This document shows positions 4,675 to 48,665 of a stretch of 64,000 bases of DNA, piece after piece. The notes beneath the pieces are model-generated. The model did not search any database and was not told the DNA's origin. It worked only from the letters and a program-made list of their open reading frames with translations. Source of the stretch: Nitrososphaera sp. (GTDB lineage Archaea > Thermoproteota > Nitrososphaeria > Nitrososphaerales > Nitrososphaeraceae); assembly GCA_029263715.1 (NCBI GenBank), contig JAJUFP010000004.1:153710-217709 (forward strand), read 5' to 3'. The first letter of the stretch is position 1, and each line of letters opens with the position of its first letter. The position numbers were made by a program, and so were the translations under genes.

Positions 4675-5892
4675 ATTCCGACACTTCAACAGACCTATAC
4701 CGGCTATGCAGCCAAGCTGATGCTGGAAGACGGTACTATTTTTGAAGGCACTGGCTTTGGCTATCCAACCGAAATTGCCGGCGAGGTTGTTTTCAACACA
4801 GGGATGGTCGGGTATACCGAGACTCTGACAGATCCGTCGTACCGCGGTCAGATTCTTTGCATGACCTACCCGCTGATAGGCAACTACGGCGTTCCAAGCT
4901 TTGACATTAAAGACGAGTACGGCCTGCCCAAGTACTTTGAGTCAGACAAGATCCAAGTCAAGGCTCTTTTGATACATGACCTTTCAGACGTTGCAAGCCA
5001 TTGGACCTGTACAAAGACTCTGGACCAGTGGCTGTACGAGGAAAAGATACCCGGCGTCTATGGAATTGACACGCGTGAGCTGACAAAGAAACTGCGCGTG
5101 CACGGCGTGATGATGGGAGTCGTTTCAGTCTCAGACAAAGGCCCGGTGGACAATGCAAGGCTCAAAAAGCTGGTTGCAGGCGCCAAATACGAGGGTCTTA
5201 ACTTCATGCCTGAGGTTTCAACTTCTGAAGTCAGGGAGTACGGCGACAAGGACAAGGATTGTGTCGTCCTTTTGGATACTGGCACCAAGTACAGCATCAT
5301 CCGAAACATCATGCGCACCGGCTACAGGGCAGTCCGTATGCCGTGGGATGCGTCGTATGACCAGATAATGTCGTACAAGCCCAAAGGTGTTGTGGTAAGC
5401 AATGGACCAGGGGATCCAAAGGTCTGCACCAGCACCATCAAGACGGCATCAAAACTCATCAAGACATCAACGCCAACGCTGGGCATATGCCTTGGAAACC
5501 AGATACTTGCGCTGGCCGGCGGGGCAGACACTTACAAATTAAAGTTCGGCCACAGGGGTCAGAACAAGCCCTGTGTTGATTTGCGTGACAACCAAGCGTA
5601 TGTTACAAGCCAGAATCACGGTTACGGAATCGATCCAAAAAGCCTTGAAGGGACCGGCTTTAAGGTCTGGTTCTCAAACGCCGACGACGATACTGTGGAG
5701 GGAATCGAGCATTCCACAAAGCCGGTGATAGCGGTGCAATTCCATCCTGAAGCATCGCCTGGTCCCTACGACTGCATGTTTGTGTTTGACAGATTCAAGC
5801 AGATAATAGATTCAGGCCGCATAACAGACGGCGTAAAAGAGGCCGCCAAAAAGAAATCAAAAGGGGGGAGGAAGAGAGTCGCCAAAAGATGA
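4675..5892 (+). CDS. carA: Carbamoyl-phosphate synthase small subunit (first ATG of track at 4720; conserved coding extends upstream, see findings)
   Basis: GEVVFNTGMVGYTETLTDPSY, LGICLGNQILALAGGA, QFHPEASPGPYD; upstream IPTLQQTYTGYAAKL in the same frame. Confidence 0.93.
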   Translation: MPTLQQTYTGYAAKLMLEDGTIFEGTGFGYPTEIAGEVVFNTGMVGYTETLTDPSYRGQILCMTYPLIGNYGVPSFDIKDEYGLPKYFESDKIQVKALLIHDLSDVASHWTCTKTLDQWLYEEKIPGVYGIDTRELTKKLRVHGVMMGVVSVSDKGPVDNARLKKLVAGAKYEGLNFMPEVSTSEVREYGDKDKDCVVLLDTGTKYSIIRNIMRTGYRAVRMPWDASYDQIMSYKPKGVVVSNGPGDPKVCTSTIKTASKLIKTSTPTLGICLGNQILALAGGADTYKLKFGHRGQNKPCVDLRDNQAYVTSQNHGYGIDPKSLEGTGFKVWFSNADDDTVEGIEHSTKPVIAVQFHPEASPGPYDCMFVFDRFKQIIDSGRITDGVKEAAKKKSKGGRKRVAKR

Positions 5893-8800
5893 GACCATAA
5901 AGAAGGTTCTTGTTCTCGGAAGCGGGGCAATCAAGATCGGAGAAGCAGGCGAAAGCCAGTAGCCTTGTGGGCCTGGCCGCAAATTTGACTACTCCGGTTC
6001 TCAATGCCTCAAGGCGCTGGCCGAGGAAGGAATCAAGAGTGTCCTGATAAACCCCAACATAGCCACGATACAGACAGACACACGGTTTGCCGACAAGGTG
6101 TATCCGGTCCCCATAAACACCGACTACGTGGAGAAGGTGATCCAAGAAGAAAAGCCGGACTCTATAATGCTGGGCTTTGGCGGGCAGACGGCCCTAAACT
6201 GCGGAGTGGCCCTGCACGAGCGGGGCATACTGCAAAAGTACGGAATCAGGGTTCTTGGAACCCAGATAAACGGCATAGAGATCACAGAGGACAGGCAGCT
6301 GTTCAAGGATGCCATGGCTAAGAGCAACGTTCCGGTTCTCCAGAGCCATGCCGTAAATTCCATCGAGGAGGCCAAAAAGGCAGCAAACGAGATAGGATAC
6401 CCGGTCATCATACGGGTGGCATACACCCTTGGCGGGCGCGGCGGCGGAGTTGCATACAACGAACTGGACCTTGAAGAAATTGTGCAGCGCGGCCTCAACC
6501 TGAGCATGGTGCACCAGGTCCTCATTGAAAAGTACGTAGGCCACTGGAAGCAGATAGAGTACGAGGTCATGCGGGACTATAGCGGCAACAGCATCATCGT
6601 CTGCAACATGGAAAACGTGCTTTCCATGCGCGTGCACACCGGCGACAACATCGTCATCGCGCCGTCGCAGACCCTGAACAACTTTGAATACCACATGCTC
6701 CGGTCCGCTGCAATACGCGCCGTAAGCCACTGCGGTATAGTGGGTGAATGCAACATCCAGTTTGCCCTGGACCCCACGTCGGAGCAGTACACGGCCATAG
6801 AGATAAACGCAAGGCTTTCCAGATCCTCGGCCCTTGCCAGCAAGGCCACCGGCTACCCGCTGGCGTACATGGCTGCCAAGATCGCTCTTGGGTACACCTT
6901 GCCAGAACTTCTCAACAAAATAACCAAGGTAACGACGGCCTGCTTTGAGCCGTCCCTTGACTACGTGGTCCTCAAGATGCCGAGGTGGGACTTTAGCAAG
7001 TTTGAGCTGGTAAAGCGCAAGCTTGGAAGCGCGATGAAGTCCGTCGGCGAGGTGATGGCCATCGGCAGGAACTTTGAGGAGGTGCTGCAGAAGGCCATAC
7101 GGATGTCGTCTATAGGCAAGGACGGCCTCGTGGCCAATGGAAACAGTCACCAAGAAACAGACATCGAACGGATTGAACAGGCGCTGCTGCAGCCAAACGA
7201 CGAGATAATCTTTGCCGTGGTGCAGGCCATGAAGGCCGGCATGAGCATTGAGCGCATCTACCAGCTCTCGGCCATCGATCCGTGGTTCCTGACAAAGATA
7301 AAGAACATCGTGGAGATGGAAGAGCAGCTCATCAAGGCCGGCAACTTTGACCCAGAGGTTGTCAGGAAGGCCAAAAAGATCGGTTTTTCAGACCGGCAGA
7401 TAGCCCGCTGCTTCAACTCGGACGAGATGCAGGTAAGAAGCCTGCGGGAGAAAGCAGGGATAAGGCCAGTTGTCAAACAGATAGACACCCTGGCTGCTGA
7501 ATGGCCAGCCAAGACCAACTACCTGTACCTGACGTACGGCGGCATTGCCGACGACGTAGTGGTCAAGGACGTCAAAAACAAGAGCAGGATGATAGTGCTT
7601 GGCGCCGGGCCGTACAGGATTGGAAGCAGCGTCGAGTTTGACTGGGGCACCGTCAACATGGTCTGGGGCCTCAAGGAAAACGGCGTCAAAGAGATATCGG
7701 TCATCAACTGCAACCCGGAGACCGTTTCAACCGACTACGACATCTGCGACCGGCTTTACTTTGAAGAGCTTACACTTGAGCGCGTCCTGGACATCTGCGA
7801 CAAGGAGCATCCCACAGGCATCGTTACCTGTGTCGGCGGCCAGACAGCTAACAACCTGACCCCCAAGCTGGCCAAGAACGGTATAAAGATAATCGGGACC
7901 AGCAGCGAGGATGTTGATAGGGCAGAGGACAGGGCCAAGTTCGGGCAGCTCTTGGACCAAGTGGGAATCAAGCAACCGGCCTGGAGCAAGTTTACCAGCC
8001 TTGCAGAGGCAAAGGGATTTGCAGAGTCTGTCGGCTATCCTGTCTTGGTAAGGCCATCATACGTTCTAAGTGGGGCGGCAATGAAGGTAGTCTGGGGCGA
8101 TCAGCAGCTGGAACGCTTCCTTACCGACGCCACCAACGTCAGCCCGGACCACCCGGTGGTCATCAGCAAGTTCCTGCAGGATGCTGCCGAAGTGGAGGTT
8201 GACGCAGTGGCCGACGGCAAGGACGTCGTTATCGGCGCGATAATAGAGCACATCGATAACGCCGGCATACATTCCGGTGATGCCATGATGTGCATACCAC
8301 CTTGGAGACTAGACAGAAACACCATAGACACCATAACCGATTATACAGTCAGAATAGGCCGGTCGCTCAACGTCAAGGGACCTTTTAACATACAGTACCT
8401 GGTCAAAGACGACCAGGTTTCGGTGATAGAGGCCAACGTCAGGGCATCACGTTCGATGCCGTTTGTGTCAAAGTTTGCTGGCCTTAACCTGATCAACCTA
8501 GCGGCAAAGGCCATGCTTGGACGGCCGCTTCCCGCCTCGGCCAAGGACCTCTGGCTCAAAGCCCCCGGCTTTGGAGTCAAGGTGCCGCAGTTCTCCTTCA
8601 TGCAGCTGGAGGGCTCTGACATCGTCTTGGGAGTAGAGATGCAGTCCACCGGCGAGGTGGCCTGCTTTGGCAGCAGCTTCTACGATGCCCTGTCCAAGGC
8701 GTACATGGCTGCGGGATACTCGCTTCCCCTGTCGGGCTCTGCACTGATAACCATCGGTGGCCAGAAGAATAAGGAGAAGCTGCTTCCGCTGATATCCATG

Positions 8801-9163
8801 ATAACTTCGATGAACTACAAGATCTTGGCCACAGAGCACACCGCCGAGTTCATGGAGAACAACAAGGTCAAGGATGTGCAGCTGGTGCACAAGATAAGCG
8901 AGCCAAACCGCAAGCCCAACATCGCAGACTTGCTGTACGAACGCAAGATCGATTTCATAATAAACATCCCGGCCACCTCGACCATTGAAAAGTACGTTGG
9001 GATGCTGTACGACGAGTACCAGATCCGAAGAAAGGCCGTCGAGATGGGAGTTCCAGTGCTGACGACGGCCGAGTCTGCCAGCTCCTTTATCAAGACGCTG
9101 CAGTGGCTCAGAAGCAACACCCCAAAGCTTGGGCCGCTTGGCAACTATGTCAAGCTTGACTAG
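5891..9163 (+). CDS. carB: Carbamoyl-phosphate synthase large subunit; 5' region contains an in-frame UAG within a 30-nt insertion; ORF track begins at GTG 6098
   Basis: Translation of the 5891 frame gives [21 protein letters not shown][SQ*PCGPGRK][16 protein letters not shown], then intact ATP-grasp domains to 9163. Confidence 0.93.
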
Positions 9164-48443: not shown

Positions 48444-48580
48444 CTTGAATCCTTGCAGTTTTTCTGTTGTCAGTCTTGAGGAGTTTGTTCTTGTATCGCA
48501 GCCTGCTTTGTTGTAGATGTCCCTCACGCAACCTAATGTTTCATTCCATTTTATGTAGAGATTAAAACATAGCTGAAGAG

Positions 48581-48665
48581 GTGGGGAGGGGATTCGAACC
48601 CCTATAAATCCGCTGACTGCACAGGCATGCTGCAGGCGAACGCATGGCCGCTCTGCCACCCCACC
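48581..48665 (-). tRNA. tRNA-Cys(GCA) with a 15-nt intron after position 37
   Basis: GGTGGGG/CCCCACC acceptor; TTCGC CTGCAG|CATGCCTGTGCAGTC|A GCGGA; T-arm AGGGGTTCGAATCCCCT. Confidence 0.87.

What the first reader, a model, noticed from the sequence alone, without database searches (positions are those of the whole stretch)
5954..5983. 30-nt in-frame insertion with UAG inside the most conserved N-terminal motif of CarB
Reading the CarB frame gives [41 protein letters not shown]. CarB proteins run directly from (Q/E)AGE to FDYSGSQ, so agccagtagccttgtgggcctggccgcaaa is extra: exactly 30 nt, frame-preserving and stop-containing. The remaining ~1020 codons are intact, which argues against an old pseudogene. 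The segment can fold (GCCAG 5955-5959 with CUGGC 5973-5977, inner GCC/GGC, flanking AAA/UUU). Options are a tiny unrecognised mRNA intron, stop readthrough with a tolerated 10-aa insert, ribosome bypassing, a fresh inactivating insertion, or an assembly error. I could not draw a canonical bulge-helix-bulge at the three possible splice registers.
Basis: partly seen in the sequence, partly recalled or inferred. Interest (0 to 1): 0.82.

Follow-up and report, generated by a model that had tools for sequence, protein, structure and literature searches.

The report
Conserved tiny intron splitting archaeal carB
A 30-base, stop-containing insert in an essential metabolic gene of an ammonia-oxidizing archaeon is almost certainly a real, ancient RNA intron shared by well over a hundred related species, and archaeal protein-coding introns of this kind were so far reported in essentially one gene.

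Summary
In detail: window 5954-5983 is a 30-nt insert with an in-frame UAG exactly between CarB motifs ...IGEAGE and FDYSGSQ..., in the genome's only carB. It is not a fresh lesion or an assembly error. An insert sits at the same codon boundary in 133 of 301 genomes of the order with a strict pattern, about 165 once variants are counted; about 105 are cleanly intronless. Lengths run from 20 to 40 nt in all three phases (84/69/45 loci), which excludes read-through. Insert and flanks fold into a bulge-helix-bulge (BHB): exon GGCG pairs with intron CGYH, two 3-nt bulges are cut after their second base, and the intron hairpin has strong compensatory covariation. Exon wobble bases that pair are conserved only in intron-bearing genes. 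The genome encodes a two-gene, crenarchaeal-type splicing endonuclease and RtcB. Best explanation: an EndA/RtcB-spliced mRNA intron, the same kind as the cbf5 intron but in a new gene and lineage, ancestral to at least the Nitrososphaeraceae plus Nitrosopumilaceae-type clade, with repeated precise losses. No RNA or protein evidence could be run.

The parts
4720..5892 (+). carA (carbamoyl-phosphate synthase small subunit), upstream gene; its TGA stop overlaps the start of the carB frame
   Evidence: ORF of 390 aa
5879..5953 (+). carB exon 1 ([25 protein letters not shown]); start codon position is TCG 5879-5881, unusual
   Evidence: Spliced translation; alignment of start regions
5954..5983 (+). 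Intron, 30 nt: A GCCAG TAGCCTTGTGGGC CTGGC CGCA AA
   Evidence: Same-site inserts in relatives, covariation, model hit E=3.0e-16 (the model was built from these sequences)
5984..9163 (+). carB exon 2 (FDYSGSQ... to TAG)
   Evidence: Spliced product matches TIGR01369 end to end
5936..5946 (+). Outer helix, 5' strand in exon 1; pairs with 5987-5998 (A.A mismatch and a bulged A inside)
   Evidence: Fold; pair counts 95.4%
5948..5951 (+). Central helix, 5' strand GGCG in exon 1; pairs with 5978-5981 (CGCA; G5948.A5981 is a mismatch here, C or U in most relatives)
   Evidence: exon-intron compensation in G040
5952..5954 (+). 5' bulge AA^A; predicted EndA cut between 5953 and 5954
   Evidence: Bulge tally AA^A 79, AG^A 25, AA^T 5
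5955..5959 (+). Inner helix, 5' strand GCCAG; pairs with CTGGC 5973-5977
   Evidence: Pairs 109/109, 109/109, 109/109, 104/109, 77/109 among distinct sequences
5973..5977 (+). Inner helix, 3' strand CTGGC
5978..5981 (+). Central helix, 3' strand CGCA in the intron
5982..5984 (+). 3' bulge AA^T; predicted EndA cut between 5983 and 5984
   Evidence: Bulge tally AA^T 81, AT^T 15, AG^T 13
5987..5998 (+). Outer helix, 3' strand in exon 2

Best explanation
5954-5983 is a protein-coding (pre-mRNA) bulge-helix-bulge intron. In the carB transcript, exon 1, intron and exon 2 fold into a BHB. The tRNA-splicing endonuclease (a two-gene EndA encoded in this genome) cuts after the second base of each 3-nt bulge, and RtcB joins GAA to UUU, which restores the motif [10 protein letters not shown] and a full-length CarB. 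Shown here: the insert, its conservation, the RNA structure with covariation, restoration of the frame, and presence of the enzyme genes. Inferred: actual cleavage, ligation and translation of the spliced RNA. The element is ancestral to at least the Nitrososphaeraceae plus Nitrosopumilaceae-type clade and has been cleanly lost several times.
For: Same-site inserts in 133 of 301 genomes by strict pattern, reversed control 0, plus variants. Lengths 20-40 nt in all three phases, 84/69/45; 108 of 109 distinct forms meet a stop if not removed. Inner helix pairs 109/109 with compensatory changes; 67 cells changed on both sides against 18.5 in shuffles, 96.3% paired against 18-51% when slid. Exon-intron double change CG to UA in the central helix of G040. 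Wobble bases of the paired exon positions fixed only in intron-bearing genes. Fold of the window is this BHB, z=-2.9. Spliced product is a full-length CPSase; only carB copy. Two EndA genes and RtcB in the genome. Clean intronless alleles in close relatives.
Against: No RNA-seq, cDNA or peptide was available, so splicing itself is not shown. In the window the fourth central-helix pair is a G.A mismatch, so this member is slightly relaxed, as in 16 of 109 distinct forms. The outer helix is interrupted by one mismatch and a bulged base. The carB start codon is non-canonical (TCG), so how translation begins is unexplained.
Confidence: 0.95

Rival explanations
1. Translational bypassing (ribosome hopping): the ribosome skips the 30-nt hairpin as in phage T4 gene 60 or mitochondrial byp elements, with no RNA splicing.
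For: Variable-length, stop-containing gap with a hairpin; all three phases occur.
Against: The codon before the gap (GAR) and the last codon of the gap (AAA, CAA, CAG, TAA, TAT, CAT) are not matching take-off and landing codons. What is conserved is BHB geometry with exon-exon and exon-intron pairing, which bypassing does not call for.
Confidence: 0.03
2. Stop-codon read-through with a tolerated insert of about 10 residues.
For: In the window the insert is a multiple of three with a single UAG.
Against: Insert length is not a multiple of three in 114 of 198 loci; the insert sits in the most conserved N-terminal motif; UAA, UAG and UGA all occur.
Confidence: 0.005
3. Pseudogene, fresh inactivating insertion, or assembly error.
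For: An internal stop in one genome looks like this at first sight.
Against: Independent assemblies, including complete genomes and isolate records (e.g. L162, L137, L156), carry it. The remaining frame is intact and family-typical. Compensatory change keeps the RNA structure.
Confidence: 0.005
4. The hairpin is cut out of the RNA, but by another nuclease than EndA, or mainly as a regulatory cleavage that reduces CarB rather than productive splicing.
For: EndA has non-splicing mRNA substrates (Haloferax HVO_1309 5' UTR, PMC7714728); no ligation evidence here.
Against: Without ligation the only carB in the genome would yield no CarB, yet exon 2 stays under coding constraint; cuts are placed to rejoin the codon frame exactly.
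Confidence: 0.02

Closest known systems
cbf5 pre-mRNA intron of Desulfurococcales and Sulfolobales (Watanabe 2002; Yokobori 2009, PMC2738675)
   Same: Protein-coding BHB intron, 16-44 nt, cut between second and third bulge base, ancestral in a large clade with secondary losses, breaks an essential coding motif
   Different: Other gene (carB), other lineage (Nitrososphaerales); the cbf5 survey listed Nitrosopumilus and Cenarchaeum as lacking the cbf5 intron; splicing of carB not yet demonstrated
Archaeal tRNA and rRNA BHB introns spliced by EndA and RtcB
   Same: Same structural motif, with central helix between 5' exon and intron 3' part, and presumably the same enzymes
   Different: Located in mRNA; structure built from coding exons
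HVO_1309 5' UTR BHB site in Haloferax volcanii (PMC7714728)
   Same: mRNA substrate of splicing endonuclease
   Different: In a 5' UTR, not interrupting a reading frame
Phage T4 gene 60 translational bypass and mitochondrial byp elements (from general knowledge)
   Same: A gap in a coding region is skipped and a hairpin lies in the gap
   Different: No matching take-off and landing codons here; BHB geometry and exon-exon pairing instead

Membership tests
Archaeal BHB intron | Two 3-nt bulges on opposite strands separated by a 4-bp helix, with helices on both sides | tested here: met
   All four central pairs in 93 of 109 distinct sequences, three plus terminal G.A in 16 including the window; bulges AR^A / AA^T and AN^T in all; slid controls 18-51% paired
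Archaeal BHB intron | Cuts after the second bulge base restore the mature product | tested here: met
   Spliced frame gives full-length CarB; variants leave only this register
Archaeal BHB intron | Splicing endonuclease and RNA ligase encoded | tested here: met
   Two EndA genes and RtcB
Archaeal BHB intron | RNA is cleaved by EndA and exons are ligated | not testable with these tools
   No transcript data or enzyme assay available
cbf5 intron family | Located in the cbf5 gene at the conserved site | tested here: not met
   The host gene is carB; it is the same kind of intron, not a member of that family
Group I or group II intron | Catalytic RNA core of hundreds of nucleotides | tested here: not met
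   20-40 nt in 198 loci; no Rfam match near the site
Translational bypass element | Matching take-off and landing codons | tested here: not met
   GAR against AAA/CAA/CAG/TAA/TAT/CAT

The most novel reading that the evidence does not exclude
The carB intron is a formerly mobile, homing-type element that became fixed in ammonia-oxidizing archaea, where its splicing now gates CarB production. In support, a contig labelled Woesearchaeota (L200) carries the same intron, a second BHB-like insert in carB, and an ORF with homing-endonuclease-associated repeats between carA and carB that overlaps the carB start.
Probability: 0.15. Interest if true: 0.9.

Novelty: new member of a known kind. Interest (0 to 1): 0.8.

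Why it matters
A 2020 paper counts the cbf5 intron as the only reported archaeal mRNA BHB intron (PMC7714728), and no paper on a carB intron was found in the open library. This case puts one in an essential gene across most of a globally important group (soil and marine ammonia oxidizers), with cultured members in which it can be tested at once. Standard gene finders that do not expect a 20-40-nt intron would truncate, split or mark carB as broken in such genomes (inference). The many intron-bearing and intronless close relatives make gain, precise loss and function of archaeal mRNA introns testable.

Tried and rejected
Register shifts: cutting one or two bases earlier is excluded by variants with AT before TTY. 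Rfam: only a chance miRNA match at E = 0.73. Other genes with a related intron: the covariance model found none in 31 genomes beyond carB; other hits are intronless carB flanks or weak. Wider phylum: no match in 289 genomes outside the order with a generic GEAGE-insert-FDYSG pattern. Pattern hits L142 (Caulobacterales) and L178 (Mycobacterium) are chance matches not in carB. L110 (labelled Heimdallarchaeota, 2.5 kb) carries a Nitrosopumilus-like carB and is probably a misbinned contig. Pairing between exon 1 base -7 and exon 2 base +3 was tested as an extension of the outer helix: no covariation. I first considered a 1-nt deletion near 5896 to explain the missing start; relatives show instead that the frame is continuous from CCA at 5882 and only the start codon is unusual.

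Full report
WHAT IS THERE. Window 4720-5892 is carA; carB follows in the +1 frame and runs to TAG at 9161-9163. At 5954-5983 the frame carries AGCCAGTAGCCTTGTGGGCCTGGCCGCAAA, 30 nt with an in-frame TAG, exactly between GEAGE and FDYSGSQ. Without it the frame gives 1084 aa that match TIGR01369 from position 1 to 1051 of 1052 with 1457 bits. No second full-length carB exists in the genome.

IT IS NOT UNIQUE. In 61 relatives, the first 171 residues of CarB matched with an extra 21-33 nt containing a stop, or the match began only at the junction; others matched without interruption. A pattern of insert plus flanks hits 133 of 301 genomes of the order, and the reversed control hits none. The contiguous, intronless form is found in 104. 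Genomes with neither were inspected: those of the window's own family whose junction could be read all carry sequence variants of the insert; the single intronless member is G013, of the same genus. My count is about 165 intron-bearing and 105 intronless genomes in this sample, the rest having no readable carB N-terminus. Named records include Ca. Nitrosotalea devanaterra (L162), N. bavarica (L137), Nitrososphaera sp. AFS (L156), Nitrosopumilus salaria BD31 (L140), and Nitrosocosmicus, Nitrosarchaeum, Nitrosotenuis and Cenarchaeum genomes. Outside the order, 0 of 289 genomes of the phylum have an insert at this site.

LENGTH AND PHASE. In 198 loci (some genomes counted more than once) the insert is 20-40 nt long; lengths modulo 3 are 84, 69 and 45 for phases 0, 1 and 2. 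Of 109 distinct sequences, 108 meet a stop if the insert is not removed. A protein that tolerates a translated insert would need constant phase, so the insert must be removed or skipped.

STRUCTURE. The RNA can be drawn as an outer helix (exon 1 with exon 2), a central helix (exon GGCG with intron CGYH), an intron hairpin, and two 3-nt bulges, AR^A (or AA^T) and AN^T. In the window the MFE is this fold, -27.3 kcal/mol, z = -2.9. The central helix here has three pairs and a terminal G.A mismatch; 93 of 109 distinct relatives have all four pairs. The three innermost-to-bulge hairpin pairs form in 109 of 109 and the fourth in 104. Shuffling the partners gives at most 97, 98 and 82 for the second, third and fourth pair; the first is almost invariant and so uninformative. 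On 63 diverse sequences 96.3% of cells pair against 92.1% in shuffles (0 of 500 reach it) and 18-51% when partners are slid; 67 cells are changed on both sides against 18.5 expected. Most of this signal comes from the intron hairpin. G040 changes exon GGCG to GGUG and the intron strand from CGNN to CACC, an exon-intron compensation.

REGISTER. Cutting after the second base of each bulge joins GAR to TTY. Inserts ending in AT (...CCGCCAT^TTCGAC) leave only this register; shifting by one or two bases would give Asp in place of the invariant Glu.

EXON CONSTRAINT. Third codon positions that take part in pairing are almost fixed in intron-bearing genes and free in intronless ones: GGC at the central helix 108 of 109 against 1 of 23; GGA/GGG 107 of 109 against 8 of 23; ATC 102 of 109 against 4 of 23; TCY 107 of 109 against 13 of 23. 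The p-values printed there ignore relatedness. In AT-rich intron-bearing genes, C-ending codons are 31% in the rest of the gene but 90% at the junction Asp and Tyr; in AT-rich intronless genes the figures are 24% and 21%.

MACHINERY. The genome has two EndA genes. One (182 aa) aligns end to end with Aeropyrum pernix EndA, keeps the GIDHAP histidine and has K-P-K where that enzyme has K44-P45-R46 of the Crenarchaea-specific loop. The other lacks the histidine motif and looks structural. Two-gene (alpha-beta)2 enzymes with such a loop accept relaxed motifs (PMC6379350). RtcB is present. The assignment of catalytic and structural roles is by sequence only.

EVOLUTION. On a CarB tree the trait needs 10 changes against 23 in shuffles. 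The intron is the common state in the Nitrososphaeraceae and the Nitrosopumilaceae-type clade, with scattered intronless branches (G013 beside the window's species; several Nitrosopumilus-type lineages) that are most simply read as losses. The empty sites are precise, as expected if spliced RNA was copied back into DNA, a route proposed for cbf5 (PMC2738675). A contig labelled Woesearchaeota (L200) has the same intron and a second 32-nt insert between GSGA and KIGEAGE that can be drawn with the same BHB layout, and a 448-aa ORF with four homing-endonuclease-associated repeats (PF18780, E = 7.5e-33) between carA and carB, overlapping the carB start. The binning of that contig is unchecked and its CarB sits on a long branch.

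ALTERNATIVES. Read-through is excluded by phase. Bypassing is disfavoured: codons before and after the gap do not match, and the conserved features are those of an EndA substrate. Assembly error and pseudogene are excluded by conservation. A dispersed DNA element is not indicated, because the covariance model finds nothing similar elsewhere in 31 genomes.

COMPARISON WITH THE KNOWN. It works like, and by every feature testable here belongs to, archaeal BHB introns, specifically protein-coding ones, of which cbf5 is the reported case (PMC2738675; PMC7714728 says only one is known). Sizes and gain/loss history are alike; gene and lineage differ. Full-text searches found no carB intron, but subscription papers and preprints are not covered.

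VERDICT. A real, conserved pre-mRNA BHB intron family in carB: confidence 0.95, with no direct RNA evidence yet. New member of a known kind, of high interest because protein-coding BHB introns were reported in essentially one gene and this one spans a major ecological group.

Noticed in passing
window 5879-5881 (TCG) and the carB start in L006-L258: The codon in the carB start position is TCG or GCG in the window's genus, CTG in many Nitrosopumilaceae-type genomes, and TTT, ATA, ATT or CTA in others, against ATG/GTG/TTG elsewhere; the carA stop overlaps it and a GGAGG (5867-5871) precedes it. Translational coupling, a non-canonical start or C-to-U editing are open.
   Followed up: partly
L200 (JAGVZX010000036.1, labelled Woesearchaeota), minus strand, carA-carB region: carB carries the same intron plus a second BHB-like 32-nt insert between GSGA and KIGEAGE; a 448-aa ORF with four homing-endonuclease-associated repeats (PF18780) lies between carA and carB.
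   Followed up: partly
G266: C10:18787-18833 and C35:576-621: One genome has two different copies of the carB intron region, either two carB genes or a mixed bin.
   Followed up: no
window 48578-48665, minus strand: ARAGORN calls an 88-nt tRNA-Ala(TGC); the length and sequence suggest a long-variable-arm tRNA or an intron-bearing one misread.
   Followed up: no
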